From: Gardnerella vaginalis ATCC 14018 = JCM 11026
Lineage (GTDB): Bacteria > Actinomycetota > Actinomycetes > Actinomycetales > Bifidobacteriaceae
Direction of reading: 5' to 3'
Length of the DNA stretch: 64,000 bases
Assembly: GCF_001042655.1 (NCBI RefSeq)
Contig: NZ_AP012332.1
Span: forward strand, 1,302,001 to 1,366,000
Below are positions 3,001 to 55,767 of the stretch, piece after piece (positions within the stretch are counted from its first letter, which is position 1; each line of letters begins with the position of its first letter). Made by a program: the position numbers and the translations under genes. The notes beneath the pieces are model-generated. The model saw only the letters and a program-made list of their open reading frames with translations, made no database searches and had not been told where the DNA came from.

Positions 3001-3955
3001 AACCTTCGTAACCTCTGGATACACAAGCTTCAAATGGTCCGCAATCTTTGGAGTATTGTGCTTTTGACCAACAGCATAGTGCCAGTTACCAGCAAAACGA
3101 TACACGCCAGCAGCAAAACGAAGCGGATTCTCATCGCGCTTCTGCCAAGCATCATCCGTCATCTCGCCAACGTAAGTCATGTCATAGAAGCGCTGACCTG
3201 CCGACTCCCAGTCTACAAAAATGCCCTGTAAGCCGTCGGTTTCCTTCTGATAATCACCCCACTGACCCTCAGTATTTCCAGCGTTATCGTAACTTCCGCC
3301 ATTAAGACCAAGCAGCTGCTTCCACCCCTTATTTGCAAGCACATTTTGCTCATCAAAGTAGAAGTTGGAGATGCTTTTCCACTGCTTTGGAGTAGGATAT
3401 GTTTTCTTAGACACAACGCCGTAGCCGTTTGTATCTGTAAACGTAAACTGCGAAGAGCCAGTTGGCACAAACGGCTGATTTCCGCGCTGATTTGTTAGTT
3501 TTTCAACGCGCGTATACGTAATATTTTGAACGTTCTTCAAGCCTTTTGGAACGCCATACCACCACATTGGGCGGAATCGCCAATCGTCAGCTGCGCCGTC
3601 TTTTTTGGCACAATTAGAAAGATAATGAACGCGAACAAACTTTCCAAGCGGGTCTTTACCTTCATCCTTGCCCGCCTGAGCATGCTCAAGAGTATCGTAA
3701 TAATCCACTTCTATGTGGAAACGAGCTTCTGTATAACTTGCGTCTGTTTTATAACCGTAATAAATGTTGTTGCCAGTGCCGTCTACATAACCGTCAGCAT
3801 AGGCAGGTGAGGAAACGAATACCCCCCCCCCCAAGCACCATTGCGCCAGTCAACATTGCAGCGCAAACGCTCTTTGAAAGAACTGGCTGAGAATCAGCCC
3901 CAACACCAGAATTAACGCCAGAATAGTGCTTAACTACACGAATCTTCTTAGACAT
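1..3955 (-). pseudogene. Large secreted surface protein with GA-like modules, frameshifted at a G11 tract and interrupted by TAG; runs off left edge
   Basis: The start is ATG at 3955, with GGAG seven bases upstream. With a 10-G tract the first ~54 residues would form a signal peptide: a basic start (MSKKIRVVK), a hydrophobic core including VLGGGVFV, and an AYA cleavage site. As sequenced, the tract has 11 Gs and translation ends at TGA 3796-3794 after 53 residues. The proper frame is open from 3834 to 1468, meets TAG at 1467-1465, and stays open in the same frame to base 1. The mature part has three ~75-residue modules, each with an LT..EK helix and a D/KDGS-type strand, then a proline-rich spacer. 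Two copies of a ~130-residue module follow, one on each side of the TAG. Then come GA-like three-helix modules (LTDKQKEDYKKQIENATT) and a Lys/Glu-rich coiled coil (about 600-720). No anchor is visible because the end lies outside. Ligand unknown; GA modules in other bacteria often bind host proteins. The gene is either phase-off plus a nonsense mutation, or a pseudogene. Confidence 0.8.
3822..3832 (-). repeat. G11 homopolymer inside a signal-peptide coding region
   Basis: Eleven consecutive Gs on the coding strand (Cs on the plus strand) fall in the hydrophobic core of the signal peptide of the surface protein. G10 or G13 would join the start at 3955 to the long downstream frame, while G11 gives a 53-residue dead-end product. 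Tracts of this length are classic slipped-strand mispairing sites. A homopolymer sequencing error cannot be excluded. Confidence 0.85.
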
Positions 3956-4309
3956 ACTCTTACTCCATCATCTTGTTTTTGAATTCTGTTCAAACCAAAT
4001 CACAAAATTCATATAATAAAGTAAAGCAAATTCTACTAATTGTTATATACAATTTAAGATTAATTTGTATGATGAATTTTATGCGATTAACGCGCGCAAC
4101 ACACAAAAATCTCGATGATGAAAATCACGCAATTGTTCAAGCAAGTAAGAGGGCTGGGTGATTCTTGGTCGAACAGTATAAGAGCGGCAGCCGATAGTAA
4201 ACAACACACTGGCTCACGCCTACAAACAAACTTAAACCAAAAAACAAAACAAAAAAGTCAAATCGGAACAACCGCAACAACAGAATACACGTAAGAGGCA
4301 GAGCGTTGT

Positions 4310-4361
4310 GCGAATCGACGACTTCGAGCTGCATAATGCGCGAGAAGTCACTTCGATTCGC
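4310..4361. repeat. Nested intergenic palindrome
   Basis: The outer arms GCGAATCGA (4310-4318) and TCGATTCGC (4353-4361) enclose a second stem GACTTC/GAAGTC. The loop segment (gagctgcataatgcgcgag) recurs inverted near 14548-14566. This element and the next fill most of the gap between the surface gene and the acetyltransferase. The rest of the gap (3956-4309) is AT-rich; it should hold the surface-gene promoter, but no convincing -35/-10 pair was found. Confidence 0.7.
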
Positions 4362-4376
4362 TGAGCCACTTAAGTG

Positions 4377-4464
4377 TAAAGTCCACTGGACTTTATTCTT
4401 GAGCCAAATCACGCTTTGAAGGAGCTTGAAATGCGTTATGCAATTTCAAGCTCAGTCAAAGCGC
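4377..4464. repeat. Dispersed intergenic repeat, inverted copy of 29127-29214
   Basis: The element has a 19-nt palindrome TAAAGTCCACTGGACTTTA (4377-4395) followed by a nested hairpin. The outer stem is CGCTTTGA (4412-4419) / TCAAAGCG (4456-4463) and the inner stem is GAGCTTGAAAT (4422-4432) / ATTTCAAGCTC (4443-4453). The 67 nt at 4398-4464 are the exact reverse complement of 29127-29193. The end of the acetyltransferase gene, including its stop codon, lies inside the element, so the element may also act as its transcript-end hairpin. Confidence 0.85.
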
Positions 4465-5123
4465 TTGGTGCGGTTTACAAACGGCTCACCCGAATATATG
4501 TACAAGTCCTCAACGAGGTCTTTTACGCGGTTCGCATACTTCTCATGATCCTTTTTAGCCCACGTAGCATCTCGCCTAAGCCCGTGATAATCGTAGAAAC
4601 TAACATCGCAAGCCGTATCTGTGTGCAAAAAGTAGCGATTCACTCCGCGGCTGCGCAAATGTTGCATTGTGCGCTTCCACAATCCGCCACCGACTCCGTG
4701 CCCGCGAGCGTCTGGAGAAACAATAAAAAGCTCCAACTCTGCCTGAGTCAAGTCGTTAATATGGCTCATCGCCTCTAACTTGCGCTCAATCTGGCCCATG
4801 CCAATCGCAGAATCCAACGCTTTTGCGTGCGAAGAATCGCCTTTAATAGCCATCTTTGCTTCTTGCTCTTCTAGCATCTTCTTAACTTGCTTAAACAGCA
4901 CTTTATCTCCGTACACGCGCGCAAGCAAAAGTCCCATAAATTTGCCGTTTATCGTTGCAACAGTTCCAAACGTGGATGGCTCTAAATAGTGCAGCACGAA
5001 TCGCCTAGAAAGATTGCGCGAAGCGTCTGCTCCAACAGCATTCGCAATCCCCCATGTGCGCTCGTATTCTTCTATGATTGCGTCAATGTCGTTAATTTTA
5101 ACTGGACGAAACTCAACCGTCAT
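4452..5123 (-). CDS. GNAT family N-acetyltransferase
   Basis: The 223-residue protein has a GNAT fold signature. The acetyl-CoA-binding motif A is visible in LFIVSPDARGHGVGGGLW (V..P..RG.GVG), preceded by a strand that resembles the usual central strand and followed by a C-terminal YFLHTD...YDYHGLRRDA segment typical of the family. The acceptor substrate cannot be read from the sequence. The start at 5123 has GAAGGA at a good distance. It follows the helicase-nuclease gene by 87 bases on the same strand and could be the last gene of that transcript. Its final codons and stop lie in the dispersed palindromic repeat 4377-4464, so the C-terminal few residues may be repeat-derived. Confidence 0.85.
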   Translation of the reverse strand: MTVEFRPVKINDIDAIIEEYERTWGIANAVGADASRNLSRRFVLHYLEPSTFGTVATINGKFMGLLLARVYGDKVLFKQVKKMLEEQEAKMAIKGDSSHAKALDSAIGMGQIERKLEAMSHINDLTQAELELFIVSPDARGHGVGGGLWKRTMQHLRSRGVNRYFLHTDTACDVSFYDYHGLRRDATWAKKDHEKYANRVKDLVEDLYIYSGEPFVNRTKRFD

Positions 5124-5210
5124 TTTGTCCTTCTTTTACTTTTACTAACTTTACTTTTACTAACTTAAATCGGCTTATATTCTACTTTTAGATTATCAAA
5201 AAAGTTGATT

Positions 5211-8200
5211 TTAAAAAGACGCTTCACTCAAAATTTCGTCGCGCGTTTTACACAATGCGTGAATCTCGCGATTTTCCGCACGCGCCTCGCTAACGTAGTA
5301 AAGAGTGGCGTCAATGCATCTTAAATCAACGTTTGTTGCGCGCGCTAGCAGCATCCTATACCAGTCGAGCTGCTCTAGTTTTAGGCGAATATCTTCCGCG
5401 CTTTTTGGCCGCTTTCCCGTCTTCCAGTCAACGATTGTGTAGAGTTTTGTAGTATCGCTAGCGTCTAGTCCTCCTGCAAAAACAGCATCCAAAGTGCCGT
5501 TGATGATTCTATTTGCAAATTCCGTATTATCGATTTGCATTAAAATCGGCATTTCTGCAGCTAGCGGCACTCGTTTTGCCCAACGCGATTCTATAAGCCG
5601 TTGCTTCCATTGATTTAATGCGCAGCTTTGCGAATCTGAATCTTTGCAACTTTGATTAAAATCATCTATAACTTTTTGTCTGTTTTCAGGCGTTTTTTCT
5701 AACGATATTCCATGTTTTACAATGTTTTTCCACTCGTAGCATTCACAAGATTCGCTCGGTGTTGCTGAGTCTACAAACTGTTGCGCCCAAGCGTGGAATT
5801 TTGTGCCCAGGTTTGCATCTATTGAAGGAATGGACGGGATTGGTCTAATGCAAGCCAATAGATTGTTGTAAACGCTTGTTTTTGCATTTTGTGCGATTTT
5901 ACTTATTTTTTGCAACGATGTTACGTTTAGTCTTGATCCGCTAGATATTTTATTCACTTTTTCGGCTAATTCTTCTAGCGAATAGTCGCAGTCATTTTGT
6001 GATGTTAAGTCCGCGTCTTGTATGAAAATTTTTGCCTTATAGAGCAACGATTTAGGGTTTGTGTTTATGGATGAATCGTATACGGATTCTAAATCAGAAT
6101 CGCAGTTTTCTACGAGTTTTGCTGATTCTATTAAGGATTTTTCTATAGTACTGCTCAACGTACAAGGCCATTTAAGTGTTGGCTCTAAACTTGATGAGTC
6201 AGACTGAGGCGCGATTTTGCTAAATTCTGCAGCAAATTCCTGAGCATCGTCTCCAGCTATAAAACCGAAAACATCCTGTTCTTCATATTCTTCAGATTCT
6301 TTCGATTCTGTTTTATTTTCCTCATTTGAATCACAGCGTTGGACTTTGATAGCTCCATTGAGATTTTTAATAGCATTTATTGATTCGTTAAGAAACACTG
6401 ACGCACTGCGCTTTCTGCCACTTTGAGCGCTATCTCCAGATGTAGCTGATCCTGTTAAAAGAGCAGCGAACTTTGCGCGCGTAAGAGCAACATACATAAG
6501 GTGACGCTCATCCATGTGAAGCTGAATTCCGCGCTCCTCACTTTGCGTAAATGGCATAGAATCAACGTTTTGCTGGGATTTATACGCGTTATACACGCGG
6601 CGCGTTTCTTCGCTCAAAAAATCGCCAGAATCCGAAGAATCGCAAGAATCTACTTCTTTAACTGCCTCCGCAAAATCGCACAAAGCTTTGATTCTATCTG
6701 GCTTAATCTCGTCAAAAATCTTTTGCACACTATCTAAACTTTGCATTGCTTTTTCTGGGTGCATTGCCTCCGCGCGCGTGACTGTATGCGGAAAATGCGG
6801 CAAAATGTTGGCATCCACGCGCAATGCGCAAGGCACGCTTGCACCAAACTCAATCGGTATGCGAGCGCTAGCCTGCCCATTATCATCAACTTTTAGCGAA
6901 TCTCCTTGATTACTTGGAAAAGCGCCCTCATTTAGACCAACTACAGCAACAGCAGGCCATTGCAATCCTTTGGATTGGTGAACTGTCATTAGCACGACTT
7001 GCGCTGGTTCTGTTTGAGACGAAGATGAAACAGAGGATCCTGACTGAGAATCAAGATTTTTTGCTGAGTCAATCCAGCTTATTAGTCCGCGCAAACTTAC
7101 GTCCTGCCACTCGCCCATTTCCTGAATATATGTTTCTACAATTGCATTTAGAGAATCTAACACACTACGCATGTCGTCCAGCATGATTTGGTTGCTAAAA
7201 TCCTTGTATTTTAAGGCAGACCCCACTGCTGTATCTATGTCTACATTAAGAGCTTGAACAGCGGCTTGCATTACGTTTGTTAGCGAGTTTCTTTGTATGC
7301 CTTCTACATTATGTAGGATTTTACTAAGTCTTTTTACTGCATCAAATCCTCCAATGCTAAGTTTTTGCTGCATTTGATTAACCCACTGGTCGTTTTTTGT
7401 GGAAAAATCACGCATTATTAGGTCTGCTAAATAAACTCCGCCATAAATATTTATGACTTGCCCAGATATTTCCCCACTATTCGCCTTGTTTCTAAGATTG
7501 CGAACGGCAGAATCCCACTGACTTTTAGGAAGATCTGCTTCTAATAATCCTGCCGACGAGTAAATGTTGTAAAGATATTCCGTGTTGGCGCTATTTGCGA
7601 TTGCAGCTAATGCCCCCAAATCATCGGTAGATAGCGCAAAACGAGGTGTGGCTAGAAGTCGCATAAGTGAGTTTGAGTCGCTGTGATCTTGCACTACTTT
7701 TAGGAGGCTTAACACATCTTTAACTGCTGGCTTTTCGATTAACGATGAGTATCCTACTATGCTTGTTCTTATACCTGCTGATTCTAATTTTTCAGCATAT
7801 TTTGGCATATTTGCTTTACTTCTAAAAAGAATTGCAAGTTGCGGCTCAAGCGGATTTTCGCCATATTTTTCAACGATTTTCTTAGCGAATCGCACTACTG
7901 CATCAATTTCTTCTGCCTGAGATGGCATAAATAGCGCTGCAATCGTGCCATTTGATGCATCCTCTTTTGGCTTTAAAGTTTCTACTTGCACTTCGCGATC
8001 GTCAATGCTGCTAAATCTACGACTTGCGTTTTGCGTTGAATTATCGCCATTTTCTCCGCGCATCGGCTCAGTTAGTGCGTTTGCAACTTTTAGTATAAAA
8101 AGCGAGTTTCTGCGTGTAACAGTTAGCGAATATTTGTTTTGTTTGTTTATATTAAAGTCTTGTTCAAATTTGCAGAAAGCTCCTGTAGACGCTCCTCTAA

Positions 8201-15584: not shown

Positions 15585-18500
15585 TTAATGGCGATTTTTG
15601 TAGATAAGGCCAAACAATCTCCTGCAGCGCAACGGTTCTGCCGAAACATTGCAATGCTTGCTGTACGTTAACTCGCCACTAAATCCGTTTCCGCTAAGCA
15701 CAGACGCCAACCATCCGCGCCTACCGAATGCGCCCGACGCGATGAAGAGTGCCATTAATATGCCGAACAGGAAGGTATACGTAATAGCAGCGTTTCCACC
15801 AGTAAACGGCAGCGGAATCGGCGACACGTTGATGCCAGTAATCTTTATGTAGCCTATGATAGGAGCTGTTTCTTTACTCTCATCATAGCCAACGCTCTTA
15901 TTATCTGACTTATCTTTTGTCTGCGCGTATACGGCGTAAACAGCCGTATTGCCATGAGTGACAAGCATCTGCTGCAATTTGTCAGAATCTACACTTGCGT
16001 TTCCGCTATTATCGCGCTTCAAAATAGGCGTGCAATCTTTATCTTGAGGCTTGTTATTGTTCATCCAACGCACGCATACTTGAAGATTCTTCTCAACTAC
16101 GTCTCGAGAATCAAAATCATCGCTAGCATCTACTAACAATTCTTTGCCGCCCACTTTACCGTTAGTGTCTGGATTACCTGTGAAAGTGAACTTAATGTCA
16201 TTAGCACTAACCTCGTAAGGTTTAGCCATAGTCGAAGATTTAAGCGAACCTATAGATTCAGCTTTAGGCTTTATTACATCAACCGGCACTACGTATACTG
16301 GAAGAAGTGTAGGTGCAGAGGCAACATTCTTAAAATGAGTTTGTGCATTATAGCCATACGTGTTCTTTAAGCTATTCATTGCCCAACCGTTAGAAAGCGA
16401 CAAAGCATAAACTGGAGCAATAGCCTTTTTAGATGTTCCTTTTATGTCATCTGCAGTTTCTATGTTCTTATGTCCGCCTAAAACTTTTTCAAGATTAAAT
16501 GATTCAGAATTGACACTCGTACAATTTGGATTTGCAGTATCACCGCCCTCACACCATTTGTTCACAGTAATATCTTGAGGACTCATATTCAAATAATTAT
16601 TACCCAATGTACTGTAATTCATGCCATTAGTGTTAGAAACATTTAATCCGCCACCATAGTTTCCATTACCTAATACTAAATCAGGTATATTGATATACTC
16701 ATCGTTCAGCGTGAAGAAACCAGAGCCATTGCCGAATTTATCTACTCTAGTTTTGCCATCAGGGAGCTGTACCGTAACTTCCTTACTACCTTCGCCATTT
16801 TTCTTATCTGTACCACTTACAACGCGCAAAGATGGTTGAATCTTCTTAAACTCATCTTCACTCATACCAGATGGAACATTCGGCTTAAGAGTGAGAGCAT
16901 TCTGTAATTGGTTTAAATCGATGCGCTTGTCTTTCGTACTCGCGTTATAACGGTACACAAGCGATTGATGACCAGGCGCGCCAACCAGTTCAAAGCCAGG
17001 GTCGCTAGAACGCTCACCAATATATGGCTTCTTCTTATCCCAAGTAATCGTGTAGTCAGCGGCAGAATTACTATCACTTCGCAGCTTAGCAAATCTTGTT
17101 ACAATATTGCGCCTAGGCTCTGGCGTTACAGTTCTCCTACGCCATCCGCGCGTAAGTATAAACGAGTCCTGCTCGCTACCTACATTAGAGTAATTATTGC
17201 GTCCATCATCCTGTTTTTGAGGAGCAATATAGTTCCCACGTTTCCACGTAACTTTCGACTCATTTGCGGCAAGAGTATCGTCATCATCATCTAAGCTAGC
17301 GTTACTATTGTCTACACTAACACCACTTCTTGTATTAGTAGCATTATCGAGCGAATCGTTATCACCCGAGTCTAGCCATTTGCCTCCTGCATTTCCGTTG
17401 CGCAATACATGATTCACAGCACGCTTTTCGGAATCATTCAGAAGCAGTGGATGCACTTGTACTACTTTCTTATTGACTACGACTGGGAAGAATACACAGT
17501 CAGACGGTTCACTCCACACCTTTGGAGCCTTACTTTCAAGACGGCATACAGAACTTCTCTTAGAAGACAAAGAGTCAACTGATTGAACACCTCGCATGTC
17601 TTCTTCTTTTGCACTATTTGCTCCGTTTTGAGCCTGACTTACATTTTCACTACCTGAAAGCTTCTTCAAATCATTATTAACAGAAGTAGTTTCATTAGCA
17701 TCATTTGCTAACTCATCCAAATTTTCGGATTTAACGCCAGGCATATCTGACCAAGGTCCGTAAGATCCAGTGCGATTCCTTGCACGCACTACGCTTCCAG
17801 GGGCTAGGAAACCTGATGGGAACAATATTGCAGTTTTATCGCCACCAAATGCTGTCTGATTTAGATCATTTGTACTTAGCCCTTCTGGGAACATGTAGCC
17901 ATCACACAAACTCCACCTATCACCTGTTTTAGCTCTACATAATGCCAATGATTCACTAATATCACTATCATCATTTATACCTGTAGTAGCATCTGCACTT
18001 CTACTGTATATTGCATTAGCACCAGCATTCCTTAGCGATACTGTATTACCAGTTTTTGCTGCAGCTTTCTTTGCGCGAGCAAAATACACTACGAGTCGAG
18101 TTGCATTATTTCCAGAAATCACAGACACCTTATTGCTGTAATTAGGAGCAGAGGCTCCTTCCCAATCATGAAGCCACACGCCAGAACCAGACAAATCATT
18201 ATAGTGATTACCATCGTATGCTCGCACAACTGGAGCTTTAGCTACAGTCCAATTGAACTTGAATTTGCCTACTACTGCTTCGTCACTCTTGTTTCCAGAG
18301 TCGTCAGTTACTTGCGCAATCATCTTGAAGGTTGGAGAATTTTTAGAATCATTTCCACGCCATTTTTCTATAAATCCGCGCAACAGTTCCTTATTTGTAT
18401 TGCCTCCTGTTACAAACCTTACGCGAGGAGCTTTTTTAGTTTTCGGATCTGTTGCACCTTCTGCTTCAATGTCTATGCTCAGAGTATCCTTCAAAGCTTT

Positions 18501-21500
18501 GCTTACATGCGTAGTCTTATCTGCAACATTGAAATCATCATCCAGTGCAAGCAAATCTACTACGTTGAATAATCCCGACTGCTTTGTAATATCAGTCTTG
18601 TTCATATCAATAGTCGTAACAGTTCCGCAAGAATTAGCATTTGTTTTAGTAGGATTACACTCGCCAAGAAGCTTCTTACTAGGATCGTTAGCATCTTTTA
18701 CTGAAATCCACGGCTTGTTCTTGTCTACTGGCACGAACCACACGTTAATTACATTTGGCGTGTGATCTTTGTCACCCTCGTCTCTGGCCTCTAATTCTCT
18801 CCACGGATTACCGTTGAAAATATATAGCTGCGCATGCAAAGGGTATTTGTTACCACTTTTCTTTAGAATAGCAGCACCAATATTAGCTCCAGAATCTTGC
18901 TGATTATAATCTTCGCCACCTGGCATAACGTAACCTTGAGGCTGAACAAAATTATCTTTATCAGTAATATTATTTGTGAATATAGTCTGACCGCCGCCAA
19001 GATTACTATAATTAACTAAATCAACAATATTAGCCCATTCTCCGCGCGCATTATTTACTTTACGTGCGTAGCCAATTCCATCACCGCGATTAGGCATTCT
19101 GTTGTATCCACCCCACAGCTTTTCTATGGTTGTCTTATTAGTAGAATCAGCATCATTAGTGTTCAATGGGTATAGTGATGGCTGTATTTGGTTTCTAAGC
19201 CATCGGCTTTTCTTTGTGCCTTGGAATAAGCTCAAAGCCTCATTCGTGTTGAAGTTTTTATTATCACCTTGGTTAATGTTGAATCTGTACACCAAATACT
19301 GTGAGCTATTTTCATCACGACCGTACCACTTAAAGCCATCGTCTGTGTTACGACCGTTTATTTTTCCACTGCCGTATGACCAATCATAATCTGCACGAAT
19401 ATTAACAAATCGCGTGATTTTCTTCTGCTTTGGATCAAGTACAGTTTCCTGATTTTGATCATCTTTAGTGTCATTGCCTGTACCAGTTGCTTTTACTACT
19501 TTAAAAGTCTTTTCTGAACCTGACTTACCTTGAGCTGTATTTTTAGTGTCAGGAGTTACAGAAAGGCAGATTTTATACTGCTTTGTGTTGTCTTTACAAG
19601 AATATTTATCGCTTGTGCCGCCAAGAGTTTTAGTTTCATCTTTCGACCAACCAATTTCATCTTTTCGGTATTGGAACAAACGCGGATTCTTTTGCTTAAT
19701 TCTATCTATCAAACCTTGTTTTTCGGAAGGATTCAGCTCATACGGGTTCACCTGAACCATGCCATCGTCTGGCCAAGTCATATCTAATGGCAATGGGTCA
19801 GAAGATGCATTCAAAGTTGTTTGAAGCTGAGAAGCATTATTGCCAACACCCGCATAAATTCTTGAACCAATCTCTGCCAAATGCTCTGGGATAGTTATTT
19901 CACCAGTTTTTGGATCAAATGTTATATCCTTCTCATAAGGCATAAAGTTAGTAAAGTACGAATGATCAGGTTTATCATCGTTAAGCTGTTGCCAATCTTC
20001 ACCTGCTTGACGAGTTAACATAATACCGTGGCATGATTTATTAGGACAATCACTAAATATTCTGAATGTATCAGTTTCTCCTACAGGCTTCTGCTTTGGC
20101 TCACCTCTTTTCCATATGCGAACAGCTAATACTGCAACTTGCTTAGATTTTGTTAAAAGATTAACTTTACCAACGTATCTACCATTTGGCTGTTTTTGCC
20201 AACGAACATTAGGAGCAGTAAACTCATCGCCAGTTATAATAAGCTTAATCTTTTTTTGAACCTTATTTCCAGCATCATCCCAAGCGTGGAACGTAAACTC
20301 TTTAACACCAGAATCATTAGATTTAAGTTCAGGACCATTTGTTTCACTTGTAGTTACATAACCTGATTGATCTGTAGCACTATCAACGCCTACAGGCTTA
20401 GATTGATCATATTTATTAAAAGCAGTTGCTTTAAATTGTTCACTTGTTGACTGTATATCTGTTTTATTGTTGTTATCTTTTACCTTTTCTTTGGTTCCCA
20501 TGTACACGTGTTTATCATCGTGACCAGTTACTAGGAATCTAATTCTGCTGCCAACCGATATTTTCATACCATTTTCAGGCACAGATCTAGGCTCTCCACC
20601 ATTGATGCTAACTTTTACGTCTATAGTCGGCTTCTCATCATCAACATGCGTAAACACAAGTGGTAATACGCCAGTAGACTCATCCCAATACGTTATTTTT
20701 GCGTACTTTGCAGCAACATACACTGGCTTTACTTCTGGCTGTTCACCAAATTGAAGCATAATACGATTTTCATCATTAGGATTAGTTGGGGTTGCGTATT
20801 CTTCTTTTACAGGATTTGAGAAGTAGTCTTTTGCAAGTTTCGCATATTTTGCTTTTTCGTCGCCAGTTAACTTTTGGTCAACTGTTTTACCACTAGGCGC
20901 ATCATAAAGTTTCCAAATATAACGCTTTGTATCATTTAGCGGCCTAAGCTTACACTCTTGACTATCTTTATTTTTCGCAGCTGCATCCGCTTGTGCAGAC
21001 TTATCTGCAGCTTTATCAGCAGCTTTGTCATCATCACCCTTGCAAGGGTCTACTACGTTTACAACTGGTACTCTTACAGCAACCTTCGTTTCCGCATCTT
21101 TCAGAGTGTTAGATTTCTTAAGCGAACCATCTGCATTTGTCCATTCAACACTATAAATGGCGCGATCTTTAATCGCCGCGTTTGCACCAGAATCTTGGCT
21201 ATACAAATAACTATCGTTAAGCGGATACTCTAAACCATGAGCATCACCGGGAATTTTACCATCCTTAATAGAACCGTAGTAAACAGAGTCATCTGAATCT
21301 GAATATTTACTATAGTTTTCAAGATTATTACTACTATGCGAATCTGGCATATATAAACGCGGATTCAATGCGTGAGCAAATTCATATATTTTACCCTTGT
21401 TATCAAGATAATTTACATAATCTGCAGCTTTTCCTAAACTATCTTTAGAAGACCTATATTTTGGATTATCTTGCCACTCTTGAGTCTGCAGTGGTCTAAA

Positions 21501-23615
21501 CACATCCGCTTGACCAATAATATCGTACTTTACTTTTTTAGCAGAACCCATTTGAAGCTTGTCATTCCAATATTGAACAGTCAAATCGTGTATGCCAAAC
21601 TTTGAATCTTTTGTATTAATATTAGTGTTAGGATCTAATGGTTTTCGCCACCATCTGTTTCCACGAGCATACTTGTTTTCTGACGCATTATACTTTGGCA
21701 ATAATGAAAGCTGGCCTTTAGCCCAAACTGTATTATTACCACATTGTGCTTCAGTATCTTTATCACACACTTCTTGTCTTGTAGGTTGGAATAACAAACT
21801 CGTAACATCAATATTCTTAGTATGAGCCAATAATTGACCATTATTGCTAGTAAAAGGACCTAAATGTGTACCACGAAGGAAGGAGTAATGCGGCACATTT
21901 ATATCTACAAGATTAGGTATTCCATACCATTGCTGATACAAAGTAGTGTATTCGTAAGTTGTATGGCCTGATCCAATACGATAATTTGACAAAGAGTATT
22001 TAGGATTCCTACTATATGGATCGCCTAAACCGTATCTTGAAAGAGGACCATGCCAAGTATCTCCATAATAGCTTCCTGCACCATAGTAGGAAGTACTCAG
22101 TTTTCCATATTTACCATTATTCGATGTTGTATAGTGAATATGGTAGCTATAAGGTGATTTGCTCTCATCAAATTGATTACGTAATGCAAAAATCTTTGCT
22201 CGTGGCTCTTTATCAGTTCCTCGAAGCTCAGAAAAGAGGTTATCTATCAATTTTATATAAGTGTCATTAAATTTTTGAGTACCATCTGGAGGAAGACGAG
22301 TACCAGCTTTATGTTCACCTTCACTTGGGAAACCATAGTTACCAGAATGATAGCAGTCAAAGCCGTAAGAATCACATAATCCAAGTTTACGATTGCTATC
22401 ATCTCTGTCCCTTTGAGTTCCACCTTCAAAAACACCAACATTTTCTATAGCATTTGAATTACCAATGCGATACCACGCTTTATCAAGGGTCTCGCCATCG
22501 TTAAGTGGCTCTTTTCTAGTGCCCTCATCAATACAAAAACCGTTTGGATTAACCCAATCTTTTGCGCAACCGCGATTCTTTGCATCAAAATGCAAGCGCT
22601 CTACATACTGGTCATACTGGCCATTACTTGTGTCGAGACTCTGATCTTTAGGAACAACAAAATAGGTCAAAGCTTTAGCAGCACCATGAATGCGCGCACC
22701 CATGTTTACAAGTACATCCCAAATATATCCATTACCATCACGTTTAGGAGTACGTTTCATAAAAATGTAATCGTGAACATCGTCAAGCTGAATACGATTT
22801 AAAGAATCAACACCATTTTTATTTTTCAAATAAGCTAAGTTACGTATACGTTTTTGCAGGTATGTTCCACGCGGATATGGAGTAAAGTTTGGGTCATTAT
22901 TCGTATAAATACCCTGAGGTTGATCATAACCACTATCTTCGCGCCAAGGATTATCTCCACGTTCCATATCAGCACCTTTTGACGCTCGATGACCTGTTTC
23001 ATCACCATCATCTGTAATGCATTCAGAACGAGCATAATTACGATTACAGCCGGGACGAAACTCCATCCTGCTGCGATCGTAACCCATTTTGTCTCCATTT
23101 GAAGATCGTTCTGTATTATTGAATATTTCATTGGAGCGATCCATGCCAAAAGAAGTATAAGATGCACCCTGCTTAGCCATACCTTTGGCAGCGCTCATCA
23201 TAGCACTGTCAATAAGTCCTTTATCAGACGCATCACCCTTAGCGGCGTTGTTAGCAAGATTATTATTTACGCTTACACCATTTTTCAGCTTTGCAAACGC
23301 ATTGTTTTGTCCATCTATAAAAACTGGAGGTTGCGATGGCGCAGAAATATCGGCATTATCAGCAGCATTAGGCTTAGCAGCAGATTTAGGCTTATCGCCA
23401 GACTTATTGGACTCATGCTTTTTACCAGAATTACCAGAGATAGCCGCATTCGCGGCAGTGCCACTGTCAGCAGCTACAGCAGTGTTTGCAGTTAGGCACA
23501 TCGGCAGCCACATCGCCACCGAAATCAGGAAAATAAGAGCAGCCTTAGTCGCCTGCTGAGCTAAACGTCCTATCCAGACGACAACACTTAGCAAAACCGT
23601 CCAAATACTTCTCAT
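15585..23615 (-). CDS. Giant LPFTG-anchored surface protein of the pilus locus (probable tip or adhesin subunit)
   Basis: The protein is ~2,676 residues. A signal peptide is seen (IFLISVAMWLPMCLTANTAVAA), followed by a low-complexity Asn/Lys/Asp region. Long beta-rich repeats follow: at least two copies of a block with ITRF..R.D..W near its start and LVYR(F/Y)N further on, plus NPYELNPSEK / HPLLLNDSEK segments. The C-terminus carries the sorting motif LPFTG at ~2602, a membrane helix and RR. An unusual ~40-residue tail follows the RR, whereas anchored proteins normally stop there. The start ATG 23615 has AGGTGG five bases upstream; an in-frame ATG at 23723 gives a longer but poorly initiated version. 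It is the last gene of the pilin-sortase-tip set, which suggests it caps the pilus and makes host contact. The ligand cannot be inferred. Confidence 0.85.
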   Translation of the reverse strand: MRSIWTVLLSVVVWIGRLAQQATKAALIFLISVAMWLPMCLTANTAVAADSGTAANAAISGNSGKKHESNKSGDKPKSAAKPNAADNADISAPSQPPVFIDGQNNAFAKLKNGVSVNNNLANNAAKGDASDKGLIDSAMMSAAKGMAKQGASYTSFGMDRSNEIFNNTERSSNGDKMGYDRSRMEFRPGCNRNYARSECITDDGDETGHRASKGADMERGDNPWREDSGYDQPQGIYTNNDPNFTPYPRGTYLQKRIRNLAYLKNKNGVDSLNRIQLDDVHDYIFMKRTPKRDGNGYIWDVLVNMGARIHGAAKALTYFVVPKDQSLDTSNGQYDQYVERLHFDAKNRGCAKDWVNPNGFCIDEGTRKEPLNDGETLDKAWYRIGNSNAIENVGVFEGGTQRDRDDSNRKLGLCDSYGFDCYHSGNYGFPSEGEHKAGTRLPPDGTQKFNDTYIKLIDNLFSELRGTDKEPRAKIFALRNQFDESKSPYSYHIHYTTSNNGKYGKLSTSYYGAGSYYGDTWHGPLSRYGLGDPYSRNPKYSLSNYRIGSGHTTYEYTTLYQQWYGIPNLVDINVPHYSFLRGTHLGPFTSNNGQLLAHTKNIDVTSLLFQPTRQEVCDKDTEAQCGNNTVWAKGQLSLLPKYNASENKYARGNRWWRKPLDPNTNINTKDSKFGIHDLTVQYWNDKLQMGSAKKVKYDIIGQADVFRPLQTQEWQDNPKYRSSKDSLGKAADYVNYLDNKGKIYEFAHALNPRLYMPDSHSSNNLENYSKYSDSDDSVYYGSIKDGKIPGDAHGLEYPLNDSYLYSQDSGANAAIKDRAIYSVEWTNADGSLKKSNTLKDAETKVAVRVPVVNVVDPCKGDDDKAADKAADKSAQADAAAKNKDSQECKLRPLNDTKRYIWKLYDAPSGKTVDQKLTGDEKAKYAKLAKDYFSNPVKEEYATPTNPNDENRIMLQFGEQPEVKPVYVAAKYAKITYWDESTGVLPLVFTHVDDEKPTIDVKVSINGGEPRSVPENGMKISVGSRIRFLVTGHDDKHVYMGTKEKVKDNNNKTDIQSTSEQFKATAFNKYDQSKPVGVDSATDQSGYVTTSETNGPELKSNDSGVKEFTFHAWDDAGNKVQKKIKLIITGDEFTAPNVRWQKQPNGRYVGKVNLLTKSKQVAVLAVRIWKRGEPKQKPVGETDTFRIFSDCPNKSCHGIMLTRQAGEDWQQLNDDKPDHSYFTNFMPYEKDITFDPKTGEITIPEHLAEIGSRIYAGVGNNASQLQTTLNASSDPLPLDMTWPDDGMVQVNPYELNPSEKQGLIDRIKQKNPRLFQYRKDEIGWSKDETKTLGGTSDKYSCKDNTKQYKICLSVTPDTKNTAQGKSGSEKTFKVVKATGTGNDTKDDQNQETVLDPKQKKITRFVNIRADYDWSYGSGKINGRNTDDGFKWYGRDENSSQYLVYRFNINQGDNKNFNTNEALSLFQGTKKSRWLRNQIQPSLYPLNTNDADSTNKTTIEKLWGGYNRMPNRGDGIGYARKVNNARGEWANIVDLVNYSNLGGGQTIFTNNITDKDNFVQPQGYVMPGGEDYNQQDSGANIGAAILKKSGNKYPLHAQLYIFNGNPWRELEARDEGDKDHTPNVINVWFVPVDKNKPWISVKDANDPSKKLLGECNPTKTNANSCGTVTTIDMNKTDITKQSGLFNVVDLLALDDDFNVADKTTHVSKALKDTLSIDIEAEGATDPKTKKAPRVRFVTGGNTNKELLRGFIEKWRGNDSKNSPTFKMIAQVTDDSGNKSDEAVVGKFKFNWTVAKAPVVRAYDGNHYNDLSGSGVWLHDWEGASAPNYSNKVSVISGNNATRLVVYFARAKKAAAKTGNTVSLRNAGANAIYSRSADATTGINDDSDISESLALCRAKTGDRWSLCDGYMFPEGLSTNDLNQTAFGGDKTAILFPSGFLAPGSVVRARNRTGSYGPWSDMPGVKSENLDELANDANETTSVNNDLKKLSGSENVSQAQNGANSAKEEDMRGVQSVDSLSSKRSSVCRLESKAPKVWSEPSDCVFFPVVVNKKVVQVHPLLLNDSEKRAVNHVLRNGNAGGKWLDSGDNDSLDNATNTRSGVSVDNSNASLDDDDDTLAANESKVTWKRGNYIAPQKQDDGRNNYSNVGSEQDSFILTRGWRRRTVTPEPRRNIVTRFAKLRSDSNSAADYTITWDKKKPYIGERSSDPGFELVGAPGHQSLVYRYNASTKDKRIDLNQLQNALTLKPNVPSGMSEDEFKKIQPSLRVVSGTDKKNGEGSKEVTVQLPDGKTRVDKFGNGSGFFTLNDEYINIPDLVLGNGNYGGGLNVSNTNGMNYSTLGNNYLNMSPQDITVNKWCEGGDTANPNCTSVNSESFNLEKVLGGHKNIETADDIKGTSKKAIAPVYALSLSNGWAMNSLKNTYGYNAQTHFKNVASAPTLLPVYVVPVDVIKPKAESIGSLKSSTMAKPYEVSANDIKFTFTGNPDTNGKVGGKELLVDASDDFDSRDVVEKNLQVCVRWMNNNKPQDKDCTPILKRDNSGNASVDSDKLQQMLVTHGNTAVYAVYAQTKDKSDNKSVGYDESKETAPIIGYIKITGINVSPIPLPFTGGNAAITYTFLFGILMALFIASGAFGRRGWLASVLSGNGFSGELTYSKHCNVSAEPLRCRRLFGLIYKNRH

Positions 23616-23681
23616 TTGTCCACCTAAACTCTCGTGTGCTAATTTCCACATGCCAATCAATGTATTAAGTTTTAAAATCTT

Positions 23682-23760
23682 AAATTTTGATGTATTTAAA
23701 TTTTGATGTATTAAACGCATCAATTTTTTTAACGTATTAAGTTTTAACGTATTAAGTTTT
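23682..23760. repeat. Two AT-rich tandem repeats between sortase and tip genes
   Basis: AAATTTTGATGTATT(T/A) occurs twice (23682-23697, 23698-23713) and AACGTATTAAGTTTT occurs twice (23731-23745, 23746-23760), ending at the sortase stop codon. They separate the sortase from the preferred tip start at 23615 and contain the alternative ATG at 23723. Confidence 0.8.
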
Positions 23761-24908
23761 CAGTTTTTAAGCTTTGAAGCCTTCGGACGCTTGCCCTGCG
23801 CAAAACCATCAATAATCGACTCAAAGGATTCCTGACTAATCCTTCTCACTTCTTCGGAATCCCTATACATCTGCTTGTTTTGGTCGCCATAAATGCCAAG
23901 CCAAAGAGTATCGTTAGTCTGGTCATCACCATTGGCATCACTATGGTCATCACCATTATTTCGATCATCGCCGTTCTGCTTATCGTTTTTCTTCTTTTTC
24001 TTCTTAACAATCGGCAGACCAGCCCAGTAAATGTAGCCTCCAACCACACTCAAGCTTGCAATGCTCCCAACAAGCCACCACGGGAATCTCGGAACATCTG
24101 GCTTTTTACCAAGCAAAGACTTGTCCGCAGCAGGAGTCGGTATTACTCGCTCTCCCGTCACCAAGATTCTCTGTGTGTTGATTCCAAGCGGCGTGCAAGT
24201 AATCAGAGTCACAAGATCCTTGCCTGGCACTGCAGCAATTTTCTTTGTTTCGTCTGGGTTTACAACAATTTTTTCTATCACCTTGTAAGTGAGAATCTCG
24301 TCAAAAACCTCGACCGTAAAAGAATCGCCCTTATCTATCTCATCCAATCTCGTGAACATTTCCGCACTAGCCAAACCGCGGTGGCCAGTAATCACGGAAC
24401 GAGTCCCTAATCCTCCAACTGGTAGAGAAGTTCCGCGCAAATGTCCAAGTCCCTTAAGCAGAGTATCGTCCTGCGTACCGTGATACACGGGCAAATCTAG
24501 GTCAATTTTCTTAATGCGAAGGCGAGCCATAAGACCATCGTCATTCGCTTTCAACTGATCCCAATAGTTTTGACTAACGTCAGACGTTTCGCCATGGGAT
24601 GTTGGAATATTCGTGTTCGCCTCATATATTGCTCCTACGGATAGCTTGCGATTGTATTCGCGCGCGCGAGCCAGCTGCTCATGCGGAGCTGGAATAGCAT
24701 GCGTGATTAGCTTAGCGTATTCCGCAGCTACTTCCGACATGTGATACTGGCTTAACCACATTGCTGCATGTGGGTATAACAGTGAGGCGAACGATGCGGT
24801 TAATAGAAGCGCTGGAACGATAGAAGATTTAGAAAATCTCCACTTTCGTTTATCGCGTTTCTTATGCTTAACCGCAACGTTTCGATTTAAGAATAAAAAC
24901 CTAAGCAT
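23760..24908 (-). CDS. srtC: Class C (pilus-polymerising) sortase
   Basis: The 382-residue transpeptidase has a basic N-terminus and a membrane segment (VPALLLTASFASLLYP). The catalytic set is visible: His176 in ITGHRG, Cys238 in TLITCTP and Arg247 in QRILVTGER. A second membrane segment near 275-300 is followed by a Lys-rich and then Asp/Asn-rich cytosolic tail. Two membrane anchors and TLITCTP are typical of class C sortases, which join pilin subunits through the pilin-motif lysine. It lies between the major pilin and the giant tip-type protein, as expected for a self-contained pilus operon. The start at 24908 has only a weak ribosome site. The C-terminal acidic tail is longer than usual. 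Confidence 0.92.
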   Translation of the reverse strand: MLRFLFLNRNVAVKHKKRDKRKWRFSKSSIVPALLLTASFASLLYPHAAMWLSQYHMSEVAAEYAKLITHAIPAPHEQLARAREYNRKLSVGAIYEANTNIPTSHGETSDVSQNYWDQLKANDDGLMARLRIKKIDLDLPVYHGTQDDTLLKGLGHLRGTSLPVGGLGTRSVITGHRGLASAEMFTRLDEIDKGDSFTVEVFDEILTYKVIEKIVVNPDETKKIAAVPGKDLVTLITCTPLGINTQRILVTGERVIPTPAADKSLLGKKPDVPRFPWWLVGSIASLSVVGGYIYWAGLPIVKKKKKKNDKQNGDDRNNGDDHSDANGDDQTNDTLWLGIYGDQNKQMYRDSEEVRRISQESFESIIDGFAQGKRPKASKLKN

Positions 24909-25113: not shown

Positions 25114-26970
25114 TTACGCTTCTTCTTGTTCCTTGCGGCGACGGGTGATGATGTAGAACAACGTGCCGCCCAAGCCAACAATGCCGAATGCAGTGAGCAA
25201 CACTAAGCCGCGCGCACCAGTCATTGGCAGTGCTGCGAGGATCTTGTCTAAGCCAGTGGCTTTCTTGTTTTCGATTTCCTTAGTATTGTTCTTTGTAGCA
25301 TCTGCAGCAGTATCTGCCTTCAAAGCAACGCACTTAGGAGTAGAATCAAGCAAATAACCAGCAGGAGCCTCAGTCTCAACCACGCAGTAAAGCTTAGTTG
25401 TTACAGCAGGATTAGTTTCCTTTGAATTGTAGACGAACAATCTTACGGAATCTGTACCTTCAGTCTTAGCTCCACCATCAGTCTTTACTTTAGTTTTTAG
25501 TGAAACATTATTGAGCTTAGTTCCAGCATCCTGATTATTCTTCTTAATCTTGCCATCTGAAACAGTAAAAGTGTCATTTGCAGTTGCAGATGTGTCAGTA
25601 ACCTCATATACATCAAACTTTGCATCATTCAAAGGCAACTTTTTCTTATCACCATTTGCGCCGATTTCTTCCGTAACCTTATTAACAGTCAACGTACCAA
25701 AGTGAGCGGTATCATTAGGAATGTCGTCACCACCGCAGTCACCATCTTTCTTGGTTGGTGTACATGGATCATTACCATCACCGTTACCAGTCTTATTATC
25801 ATCAACGTACGTATTGGCTACGTTAGCAATGTCCTTAACAGTATCAGCAACTTTAGTGACAAGCTCTACCTCAAGCTTAACAACTTTCTTATCGGTAGTG
25901 TGTTTAGAATACTCATCATAAGCCTTTTTGAGACCACCAGTAGATTCGGTACTAGTAAGAGAGAATGAAACTAAACCATTAGTATTTGTAGCTGTGTAAT
26001 GAGTAGTAGCATCAAGAGGTACATCATTTGCACTTGTATCTTTTTGACCAGAATCAGTATAAGTCACAAGTTTTGCACTGCTAATCTTATCGTAAGTTAA
26101 ACCAGTTTCTAGCTTATCCTTAAAACCGATCTTCTCGTACTTATTGCCATTCTTAGGAGCTGTGAGAGGAATCGCAATCTTCCAAGTTATAGTGGTTTCA
26201 TTATCCTTAGTCAAATCCTTACGGCTTAAGCTGCTAACTGTCTTAGTTGGACGTTCCTTGCTTGTATCATTCTTTGGATACACATTAACAGCGTAAATCC
26301 AAGGATTAGCCTTGTCTTTAGGATTTGGAAGAGGAGTGGTCACAAAGAACGGAGAAACACGCTTTGTAATGGAAACCTTTTTCCATGTGCCGTCTTCTTG
26401 TAATTGTGCACCAGAAGTATCGGTTTCTTCGATGTAGTAAAGACCCATCGCAAGATTTTCAAACTTGGCTTCACCACTATCACCGGTTTCAACGGTTTTA
26501 CCATTAGCTTTGTTAACACCATCACCAGTATCTGTATACTTCTCAAACTCTGCATTAGCGCCAGTCATAAACTCGGAAGCTGTCTTCTTACTAGCAGTAG
26601 TTGTTGCTACTAAATCTTCTAACTTTTTAATCTTTTTCCAGTCTGAAGACTTTGAAAGGTCAATATCATCAGAAGAATTTGCATTCTTCTTCTTTACTCG
26701 CCATAGAGTAAACTTAACACCCTTAACTGGCTTCTTATCTTTTAAAGTCTTAACAGTACCATCAGAACGTTCACTAGTTTCAGGTCCCTGATACTTGTGA
26801 ATAATAATGGATGTAGCGCTCTTTTTGCCCTGATTAATATTAGCAGTGTCAACACCCTTAGCCTCACCCTGCGCATAAGCAATAGAGCCAGCAATACAGC
26901 ATGTTCCAAGTGTGCATACCGCCGCCAAAACAGCAACGGTGCGCTTCAGCGAATTCGTATTTAAACGCAT
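25114..26970 (-). CDS. Major pilin subunit with LPMTG sorting signal
   Basis: The 618-residue precursor has a signal peptide ending near AYA (residues 31-33). The pilin motif is seen as WIYAVNVYPK (224-233), where Lys233 is the expected cross-linking residue. An E-box is seen as ETEAPAGY (from ~532), the site of an internal isopeptide bond in Cna_B-type domains. LPMTG (581-585) is followed by a membrane helix and RRRK. This is the standard layout of a FimA/SpaA-type backbone pilin polymerised by the adjacent sortase. The start ATG 26970 is preceded by AGAGGA. Upstream lie phased 11-bp repeats and a G10 tract, so expression may be both regulated and switched by tract slippage. Confidence 0.93.
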   Translation of the reverse strand: MRLNTNSLKRTVAVLAAVCTLGTCCIAGSIAYAQGEAKGVDTANINQGKKSATSIIIHKYQGPETSERSDGTVKTLKDKKPVKGVKFTLWRVKKKNANSSDDIDLSKSSDWKKIKKLEDLVATTTASKKTASEFMTGANAEFEKYTDTGDGVNKANGKTVETGDSGEAKFENLAMGLYYIEETDTSGAQLQEDGTWKKVSITKRVSPFFVTTPLPNPKDKANPWIYAVNVYPKNDTSKERPTKTVSSLSRKDLTKDNETTITWKIAIPLTAPKNGNKYEKIGFKDKLETGLTYDKISSAKLVTYTDSGQKDTSANDVPLDATTHYTATNTNGLVSFSLTSTESTGGLKKAYDEYSKHTTDKKVVKLEVELVTKVADTVKDIANVANTYVDDNKTGNGDGNDPCTPTKKDGDCGGDDIPNDTAHFGTLTVNKVTEEIGANGDKKKLPLNDAKFDVYEVTDTSATANDTFTVSDGKIKKNNQDAGTKLNNVSLKTKVKTDGGAKTEGTDSVRLFVYNSKETNPAVTTKLYCVVETEAPAGYLLDSTPKCVALKADTAADATKNNTKEIENKKATGLDKILAALPMTGARGLVLLTAFGIVGLGGTLFYIITRRRKEQEEA

Positions 26971-27196: not shown

Positions 27197-27228
27197 TAAC
27201 AAAAGCCTACTAAAATAAGCTTTTAATA

Positions 27229-27238
27229 CCCCCCCCCC
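27229..27238 (-). repeat. G10 homopolymer upstream of the major pilin gene
   Basis: Ten Gs on the pilin strand lie about 260 bp before the pilin start. They sit between TTTCAA and TATTAA with a total spacing of 17 bp, so the tract could be the spacer of a weak promoter and length change would alter its strength. The hexamers are poor matches, so the promoter reading is tentative while the tract itself is certain. Confidence 0.7.
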
Positions 27239-27378
27239 GGTATCGTTGAAATATCAGGGTTTTCTCAGCTTAATAAGTGATTAAAATTGTTAAAAATTCT
27301 TTCCGAATTTTTGCTAAATTCGCACCTTGGCGTGTCGAATAAACCGCGTCGTTATCGCTCAGGCAGGTAATCGTTCGC

Positions 27379-52253: not shown

Positions 52254-52295
52254 ATTTGATTTGTGCGCGAGTCGCGAATGCTTCTCGGGCAAATT

Positions 52296-52368: not shown

Positions 52369-52405
52369 CTTAAAGTTTCTTTTTCGCTTGTTTTAGGCGA
52401 TTTAA

Positions 52406-52486: not shown

Positions 52487-52487
52487 C

Positions 52488-52525
52488 AAAAATGGACCAA
52501 ATGCTATTGCACCTGGTCCATTTTT
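52488..52525 (+). terminator. Terminator of the tRNA-Thr/Leu transcript
   Basis: TGGACC/GGTCCA stem extended by AAAAA/TTTTT with a 16-nt loop. The T run marks termination on the plus strand, and the A run could serve the converging lysozyme transcript. Confidence 0.85.
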
Positions 52526-52571
52526 CTCTTAAACGAAACAACCAAAGAAAATATTAACTCTTAGTCTAAAA

Positions 52572-54482: not shown

Positions 54483-54654
54483 AACTCCTCCAGAGATATG
54501 CTTTTACGTGTTTTTACCTCATACAACCATAGCAATATGCGCAAACAGTAAAGAAACAAATCGCAAATCAGAATAACGAAAAAACACAAAAATAACTATG
54601 ACTAATCACGATATATTTAGAACAATCGGAATCAAAGAAATCACAGAAATCAAG

Positions 54655-54728
54655 TGGAGCGGATGACGGGAATCGGACCCGCGTCATCAGTTTGGAAGAC
54701 TGATACTCTACCATTGAGCTACATCCGC
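54655..54728 (-). tRNA. tRNA-Gly (TCC)
   Basis: On the minus strand acceptor arms GCGGATG/CATCCGC, anticodon loop CTTCCAA with TCC, T arm GACGGG-type stem with TTCGA-like loop; CCA is encoded at 54657-54655. The rest of the gap 54483-54947 holds only a dispersed repeat. Confidence 0.93.
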
Positions 54729-54860
54729 AATTGCACGTAATGGAATTTTTATAAGACCCCAAAACAGCGACTCGAACAATTATACAGATGATTTTGACAT
54801 AAAACAACTAACGACACTCCACTTAGATTCTCAAGAGCGTTGTACCACACGATTAACATT

Positions 54861-54905
54861 CCCGTGTTTGTTCCCTTTTTATGCAAATACGACAACAAAC
54901 GCGGG
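54861..54905. repeat. Dispersed intergenic repeat (copy 3), hairpin form
   Basis: CCCGTGTTTGTT and AACAAACGCGGG arms pair with one G-T. The interior CCCTTTTT...AAATACGAC matches the copy at 27379-27423. A run of nine As follows on the plus strand. Confidence 0.7.
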
Positions 54906-54947
54906 AAAAAAAAATAAACAAAACCATACAGTGCAAATCGCAAATAT

Positions 54948-55430
54948 CTAAGCTATTTCTAGAATCACAAACGCAGAGGCGATTGCAGATGCATCTTCAA
55001 GCAAACCATCGTGGCTCAAAGAAACATGCCATCTAATAGAAAAGCCATTCTGTGCATTAATCATAGGAACCGTGCTCAAAGATTGCATAAGCTTTTCATT
55101 AACAGCATCATTAAGATGGACACTTGGGCAACCACGAGAATCATCTAAAATCTCAATACTCGACCACGGTGTGTTATCTAGCGTGTAAGGATATTTTGCA
55201 TCTCCAAACGAAGATAAAGCCTCGCACCACGCTTTTATAACTGCCTCTTTTCCAGCCCAGCGCGCTGCAATATGCATCGCCTCAGCGTCGTTTTTTGAGT
55301 TCGCTCGCATGGCGCACTGTCTAAGCTCTCTCTGAGAAAACAGAGCACGCCAACCATCGCCATCATGCATCTGCTCAGCAAACTGCGCAACGTTTACCAA
55401 GTCGTGCCCTATTCCTGCAATCATACACAC
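54948..55430 (-). CDS. acpS: Holo-[acyl-carrier-protein] synthase
   Basis: The 160-residue enzyme transfers phosphopantetheine from CoA to acyl carrier protein domains; in bifidobacteria the main client is the large type I fatty acid synthase. The motifs GIGHDLV (metal-binding Asp10) and WAGKEAVIKAW (Glu62) are present, with FSQRELRQC between. The usual Gly-x-Asp reads GHD here. The start could be Met1 or Met3. It is oriented away from the giant surface gene to its right. Confidence 0.9.
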   Translation of the reverse strand: MCMIAGIGHDLVNVAQFAEQMHDGDGWRALFSQRELRQCAMRANSKNDAEAMHIAARWAGKEAVIKAWCEALSSFGDAKYPYTLDNTPWSSIEILDDSRGCPSVHLNDAVNEKLMQSLSTVPMINAQNGFSIRWHVSLSHDGLLEDASAIASAFVILEIA

Positions 55431-55755
55431 CTACTTTTAGCACATATACATACTTTTTTATGTTCTACGCAAAAATACTATATAAAATCTTGTATAAAAT
55501 ATATTTAAATCAACAATCACTTACGCGCTTTTACTGCAGTAGCAAACGCCGAAAAAATCACCGGCAAATGTTTTCCAAAACTACAAAACGACAGCAAACG
55601 CCAGAAAATTACGCACGCTACTACCTGCTTAAGCATGTGTACAAGAAACGCTACAAGTGTGATTAATTCATATGCGAATAAATTACTATAAAACGATAAA
55701 ATTTTAGATAATTTTAAACAATCCGTCGTTATGACAATATTTTATACATAGAGCA

Positions 55756-55767
55756 CCCCCCCCCCCC
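55756..55767. repeat. C12 homopolymer upstream of the Rib-repeat surface gene
   Basis: Twelve consecutive Cs lie 229 bp before the start of the giant surface protein and about 45 bp before its best promoter. The gap 55431-55996 contains no gene. The tract resembles those at 3822 and 27229. Confidence 0.8.

What the first reader, a model, noticed from the sequence alone, without database searches (positions are those of the whole stretch)
3822..55767. All three main surface loci in the window carry a 10-12 nt G/C homopolymer
G11 (3822-3832, in a signal peptide), G10 (27229-27238, pilin upstream region) and C12 (55756-55767, upstream of the Rib-type gene) are the only long G/C runs I noticed in 64 kb, and each sits at a surface-protein gene. 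In an AT-rich genome such runs should be very rare. The simplest reading is an independently switching set of adhesins and pili giving many surface phenotypes per population. Similar poly-G variation has, to my recollection, been described at some bifidobacterial pilus loci; the multi-locus arrangement is the point to check.
Basis: partly seen in the sequence, partly recalled or inferred. Interest (0 to 1): 0.85.

Follow-up and report, generated by a model that had tools for sequence, protein, structure and literature searches.

The report
Poly-G switches at Gardnerella surface genes
This vaginal bacterium carries about two dozen slippery runs of G or C, nearly all at genes for surface proteins, where changes in run length probably switch the genes on and off; the general idea is already published for this genus, and the added detail here is how the runs are built into promoters and signal peptides.

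Summary
Observation confirmed. The three runs (11, 10, 12 nt) are the only G/C runs of 6 or more in the window; each lies at a surface gene. The genome has 24 runs of 9 or more (about 0.75 expected) and one of 7-8 (about 14 expected). Multi-locus poly-G/C variation in Gardnerella is already in print (Garcia 2024, PMC11287997); that paper's primers match the window exactly around the 3822 tract, which varied between sibling colonies. Added here: of 24 genome tracts, 7 lie in or just after a signal peptide, 13 between a -35-like and a -10-like box, 1 upstream of a promoter (Rib gene), 3 unclassified; 21 go with secreted or surface proteins. Five are copies of one promoter cassette; all 36 cassette sites in 12 of 112 genus genomes abut a G-run of 9 or more. 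The cassette genes fetched share their ends but not their cores, and paralogues are more alike within genomes than between, on average. No MutS match, NucS present. Switching at the pilin and Rib tracts is inferred, not shown.

The parts
3822..3832 (-). G11 tract (sense strand) 41 codons into a secreted-protein gene, inside the signal-peptide-like leader; out of frame at this length in this assembly
   Evidence: published clonal length variation at this tract
3833..3955 (-). 5' piece of the gene: start codon and first part of the leader, ending at the tract
1465..3821 (-). 3' piece of the gene, open in another frame; atypical Rib domains and MiiA motif
27229..27238 (-). G10 tract upstream of the pilin gene, between a -35-like and a -10-like box
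27246..27251 (-). -35-like box TTTCAA (17 nt from the next box, tract included), assigned by eye
   Evidence: the consensus scanner did not list it
27223..27228 (-). -10-like box TATTAA directly after the tract, assigned by eye
   Evidence: not listed
25114..26970 (-). SpaH/EbpB-family LPXTG major pilin gene
23760..24908 (-). sortase gene next to the pilin
15585..23723 (-). large gene of 2,712 codons after the sortase, no Pfam match; membership of the pilus cluster is by position only
55756..55767 (+). C12 tract upstream of the Rib-type gene
55771..55781 (+). near-palindrome GGAAATTTTAC next to the tract (exact dyad GTAAA-T-TTTAC in 2 of 6 aligned genomes), possible operator
55812..55840 (+). 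promoter-like site ACGACA-17-TATAAT, 44 nt after the tract; TATAAT kept in 4 of 6 aligned genomes (G000, G031, G131, G097), not in G113 and G132
   Evidence: number of such sites in the region not above shuffles (4 against 2.7)
55997..64000 (+). Rib-domain surface gene, runs off the window

Best explanation
The three runs are contingency loci: short homopolymers that gain or lose bases by slipped-strand mispairing at replication. In this window they use three mechanisms. At 3822 the tract sits inside the signal-peptide leader, so its length decides whether the secreted protein is read in frame (translational switch). At 27229 the tract fills the spacer between a -35-like and a -10-like box before the pilin, so its length would set promoter spacing and hence pilus transcription. 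At 55756 the tract lies 44 nt upstream of the core promoter of the Rib gene next to a near-palindrome, so its length would alter the spacing between a regulator site and the promoter. Across the genome these three designs fit 21 of 24 tracts, all at genes judged secreted or surface. Shown: tract anatomy, bimodal run lengths, conservation in related species, and (published) clonal length change at 3822. Inferred: expression change at all three loci, the boxes and operator, and independent switching.
For: Run excess and bimodality. Clonal variation of the 3822 tract. The 3822 tract is found at 12 loci in 10 of 112 genomes of the genus, own genome included; 9 of the 12 are uncut by assembly gaps and measure 8-11. 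Frame type: 33 tracts in or after signal-peptide-like leaders in 7 genomes, 13 in frame and 20 out of frame, near the one third in frame expected of a free slip (2 of 33 by eye, 1 of the 13 ambiguous; an open downstream frame of 150 codons was part of the selection, so it is not evidence). Spacer type: of 100 usable other tracts in 7 genomes, 68 are followed at once by TA (background 8%), 60 have TTG starting 13-18 nt before (background 18%), 51 have both; collapsed to 46 groups, TA 24 (p about 1e-14), TTG 19 (p about 5e-5). Cassette: 36 sites in 12 of 112 genomes, 2 for the reversed pattern; all 36 abut a G-run of 9 or more. Genes whose product starts like the pilin have an upstream tract in 6 other genomes. 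No MutS domain found, NucS present; NucS is reported unable to correct indels (passages of PMC8228993).
Against: The promoter scanner did not list the pilin spacer promoter; its -35 (TTTCAA) is poor. With looser grouping (32 groups) the TTG signal weakens to p = 0.02 while TA stays at 5e-8. TA also follows 16 of 32 in-ORF tracts, so TA alone is no proof of a promoter. Spacers of the 51 box-pair tracts run from 16 to 25 nt and all 23 cassette spacers are 18-20, longer than the usual 17. The Rib promoter site is no more frequent than in shuffles. Three of 24 tracts have no clear surface gene. The pilin DNA query matched only 6 of 9 relatives. Tract lengths in assemblies may carry sequencing error.
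Confidence: 0.85

Rival explanations
1. The runs are neutral by-products of GC skew and poor indel repair, without function.
For: G lies on the leading strand for 23 of 24 tracts, which GC skew alone explains (expected 0.90, p = 0.29; dnaA at 571, terminus taken as opposite). No MutS match.
Against: One run of 7-8 against about 14 expected, 24 of 9 or more against 0.75; places are fixed relative to promoter-like boxes and signal peptides and kept in several species.
Confidence: 0.05
2. The poly-G/C runs are fixed structural elements (stiff spacers or protein-binding sites) whose length matters little.
For: All 23 fetched cassette tracts lie at 9-11 nt, and the later 9 lie at 9-10.
Against: Lengths differ between orthologues (8-11 at the 3822 tract) and between sibling colonies.
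Confidence: 0.07
3. The out-of-frame genes, such as the one at 3822, are decaying pseudogenes or assembly errors rather than switched-off genes.
For: 20 of 33 frame-type tracts are out of frame.
Against: Orthologues of the 3822 gene in G080 (second copy) and G131 are in frame at their own lengths, two lengths coexist in clones, and the 3' piece is open over 780 codons.
Confidence: 0.03

Closest known systems
Gardnerella variable homopolymer tracts (Garcia et al. 2024, PMC11287997; abstract, sections 11, 12, 13, 39 and passages read)
   Same: Same genus, same kind of tracts, same association with Rib, GA, FIVAR, InlB-repeat and LPXTG proteins; the 3822 tract is the one they sequenced.
   Different: A word search of the main text (promoter, spacer, leading strand and others) shows no placing of tracts between -35 and -10 boxes; supplements were not read. 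They call the gene a GA-module protein; my Pfam scan of the piece after the tract finds atypical Rib domains, not GA.
Bifidobacterium breve pilus G-tracts (Penno et al. 2022, PMC9187656; abstract, sections 12, 15, 21 read)
   Same: Poly-G of 8-13 nt at sortase-dependent pilus clusters in Bifidobacterium (GTDB puts the present genome in the same genus as these relatives, by recollection), replication slippage shown.
   Different: There the B. breve tracts are inside the first pilin gene, between Sec signal and LPXTG; here the pilin tract is 258 nt upstream of the start.
fetA/porA of Neisseria (passages of PMC5320596)
   Same: Homopolymer between the -35 and -10 boxes changes transcription.
   Different: Here the design is inferred at 13 loci of one actinobacterial genome, five of them copies of one cassette.
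nadA of Neisseria meningitidis (abstract of PMC2791445)
   Same: Phase-variable tract outside the core promoter, flanked by repressor operators.
   Different: Homopolymer rather than TAAA repeats (recalled); no regulator known here.
Neisseria opa family (recalled, no paper read for it beyond listings)
   Same: Dispersed paralogues, each with its own repeat tract, with constant and variable parts.
   Different: Opa tracts are in the coding region (recalled); the Gardnerella cassette tract is in the promoter.

Membership tests
Simple-sequence-repeat contingency locus (phase variation) | Homopolymer long enough to slip, in excess of chance | tested here: met
Simple-sequence-repeat contingency locus (phase variation) | Placed where length changes would alter frame or promoter | tested here: met
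   for the Rib tract the effect on the promoter is less clear
Simple-sequence-repeat contingency locus (phase variation) | Length varies within a clone | not testable with these tools
   Published for the 3822 tract; no reads held for 27229 or 55756
Simple-sequence-repeat contingency locus (phase variation) | Expression switches reversibly with length | not testable with these tools
   needs expression data
Promoter-spacer switch of the fetA/porA type | Tract between -35 and -10 boxes | tested here: inconclusive
   Signal over many sites strong; for the pilin the boxes are weak and the scanner missed them
nadA-type distal switch (Rib gene) | Tract upstream of the core promoter with flanking operators | tested here: inconclusive
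   Near-palindrome on one side of the tract only, TATAAT in 4 of 6 aligned genomes; no regulator known
Bifidobacterial pilus G-tract (Penno type) | Tract inside the first pilin gene between signal peptide and LPXTG | tested here: not met
   Tract is 258 nt upstream of the pilin start

The most novel reading that the evidence does not exclude
Gardnerella has an Opa-like repertoire built on transcription: a promoter cassette with a poly-G spacer, a signal peptide and a C-terminal anchor-like tail recur together around the chromosome (5 copies here, up to 6 in relatives), kept alike within each species by gene conversion while the cores diverge, and each copy switches on its own, so that a clone presents many combinations.
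Probability: 0.45. Interest if true: 0.65.

Novelty: new member of a known kind. Interest (0 to 1): 0.5.

Why it matters
Gardnerella is associated with bacterial vaginosis, and clonal heterogeneity of its surface could bear on persistence, recurrence and immune recognition (argued in PMC11287997). The anatomy gives a concrete prediction for each locus (frame, promoter spacing, distal spacing), so that tract lengths read from vaginal metagenomes could be turned into an expression forecast. The cassette family is a candidate variable antigen set; I saw no report of it in the listings, which show only the top rows of an open-licence library.

Tried and rejected
A special strand rule: G lies on the leading strand at 23 of 24 tracts, but GC skew alone predicts about 90% (p = 0.29), so I claim no more. 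Correlation between the non-G part of the spacer and tract length, which would show tuning to a fixed spacing: none (r = -0.07, n = 51). Spacer promoter of the pilin by consensus scan: not listed. Cassette proteins: no Pfam match for the two of five scanned, and for one of three only weak NCBIfam matches below their cut-offs. Two tracts (L039, L042) share a repeated terminator-like flank; not followed. The tract at L040:11482 first looked attached to a gene of 440 codons without a signal peptide; on the other strand a secreted gene of 1,442 codons starts 111 nt away, and the same start follows the tract in 4 relatives (L075, L095, L104, L138). The genome-wide TA signal also shows at half of the in-ORF tracts; unexplained. 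Papers seen only as passages: Yeoman 2010 (PMC2928729; no word beginning with phase or homopolymer in it) and PMC12519793.

Rows dropped: of 139 tracts of 8 or more in 7 genomes (24 + 115), 137 entered the counts; 2 of G112 were fetched only later as short stretches. G014, G113 and G022 (41 tracts) were left out of those counts because of assembly gaps. One signal-peptide candidate (L118) was judged false by eye and moved to the other class. Four of 104 non-ORF tracts next to runs of N were left out; one search used a stricter N filter. In one search, 20 of 23 cassette genes had a start that my pattern recognised and 19 were complete.
Full report
Observation. Only three G/C runs of 6 or more exist in the window, at the coordinates given. 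There are none of 6 to 9; shuffled sequence yields 0.027 runs of 9 or more per window and 3.3 of 6-8, though some shuffles have none of the latter. The genome (1,667,406 bases, one contig, window at 1302001-1366000) has 24 runs of 9 or more and 25 of 7 or more; the odd one is 7 long. Shuffles of the 297,917 bases held of this genome, scaled up, predict about 14 runs of 7-8 and 0.75 of 9 or more. Too few short runs and far too many long ones is not what drift gives.

Organism. Size, the exact match of the Gardnerella primers and the 1.5-1.8 Mb relatives with the same tract point to Gardnerella vaginalis or a very close relative; this is inference.

Published state. Garcia et al. 2024 (PMC11287997; abstract, sections 11, 12, 13, 39 and passages) report a median of 20 G/C tracts of 8 or more in 91 Gardnerella genomes, in their strains about 70% upstream of ORFs and about a quarter within, often at proteins with Rib, GA, FIVAR, InlB-repeat or LPXTG motifs, but also at methyltransferases, transporters and others. 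They Sanger-sequenced one tract and found two lengths among colonies of a single origin in two strains. Their primers fit window 3629-4173, 545 bp against their stated 546. So the first tract of this finding is the very one shown to vary. Penno et al. 2022 (PMC9187656; abstract and sections 12, 15, 21) show slippage at intragenic pilin G-tracts of B. breve.

Classes in this genome. From, partly by eye, I sort the 24 tracts so. Seven lie in an ORF, in or just after a signal-peptide-like leader, as G (glycine) or C (proline) runs; two are in frame and five out. The 3822 tract is inside the leader; the other six lie after it. Thirteen lie between a -35-like and a -10-like box: eleven with TTG plus TA (spacers 17-21, one of 25), the pilin tract with TTTCAA-17-TATTAA, and the tract at L040:11482, which on the C strand reads TTGATA, tract plus 9 nt, TATGTT and precedes a secreted protein of 1,442 codons. 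One, at the Rib gene, lies 44 nt before ACGACA-17-TATAAT beside a near-palindrome. Three are unclassified. Twenty-one of 24 go with genes judged secreted or surface; by a crude test that also catches membrane proteins, 8 of 26 window ORFs have a signal-like start (the Rib gene runs off the window and is not among the 26, and the 3822 gene is counted without its leader).

Comparison across species. I took 137 of 139 tracts of 7 genomes. In-ORF tracts: 33, of which 13 in frame and 20 out. Other tracts: 104, of which 100 usable; 68 are followed by TA, 60 have TTG at the -35 distance, 51 have both; control offsets give 8% and 18% on average, at most 20% and 28%. Collapsed to 46 groups the two signals give p about 1e-14 and 5e-5; collapsed to 32 groups, 5e-8 and 0.02. 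TA also follows 16 of 32 in-ORF tracts, which I cannot explain, so the TTG box and the cassette are the firmer evidence.

The cassette. The pattern CTTGACTTTTNNNAACG occurs 36 times in 12 of 112 genomes of the genus, against 2 for the reversed pattern. It asks for a single G, yet all 36 sites abut a G-run of 9 or more (in G022 the run is followed by an assembly gap). Of the 23 cassettes in the fetched set, 22 are followed at 119-131 nt by a gene whose product begins MxNKKAIAA, and the 23rd shows the start of the same gene before its contig ends. Mean identity within a genome against between genomes: upstream 0.92 vs 0.71, signal peptide 0.98 vs 0.82, C-terminus 0.97 vs 0.69, leader between tract and start 0.82 vs 0.73, core 0.39 vs 0.29. 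The ranges overlap: the closest between-genome pair reaches 0.96 upstream. This fits gene conversion of the ends with divergent cores; recent duplication with replaced cores is not excluded. One member in this genome ends in an LPTTG-type signal, four in LGNAG at the same place.

Window loci in relatives. The 3822 tract is present in 10 of 112 genomes of the genus, own genome included. The Rib-upstream query has some match in all 9 relatives searched, but in several of them only short pieces match; the tract with its flanks could be aligned for five of them (G031, G131, G097, G113, G132). Genes whose product starts like the pilin, with a tract about 245-320 nt upstream, occur in G031, G080, G131, G132 (which has a second tract at 447), G014 and G022; they were judged by their first residues, not by domains.

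Why they slip. A MutS domain search found nothing in the genome while it rang in 11 of 14 control genomes; NucS is present. NucS repair is reported not to correct indels (passages of PMC8228993). One Pfam family for MutS is a limited test.

Verdict. The additions are the assignment of three different switch designs to the three loci, the recurring promoter-spacer design, and the cassette family with signs of concerted evolution.

Noticed in passing
L031, L033, L035, L045, L047 (cassette genes outside the window): Five dispersed paralogues with constant signal peptide and tail and divergent lysine- and alanine-rich cores, each behind the same poly-G promoter cassette.
   Followed up: partly
L039:6390 and L042:6511: Two tracts share a flank (CTCTCTAGGCTG and on); in L042 it forms a terminator-like inverted repeat around the tract. 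Possible repeated element.
   Followed up: no
L038:4001-15256: Four in-ORF tracts within 12 kb at neighbouring secreted proteins with similar signal peptides; one in frame, three out.
   Followed up: partly
window 5211-14352: Two large genes with UvrD-like helicase and PD-(D/E)XK nuclease domains side by side, AddAB-like by recollection, not far from the 3822 gene.
   Followed up: no
window 27572-29017: AAA_14/DUF4143 gene divergent from the pilin across the tract; whether the tract also affects it is open.
   Followed up: no
genome tracts: TA follows the G-run at 16 of 32 in-ORF tracts too, against about 8% expected; unexplained.
   Followed up: no
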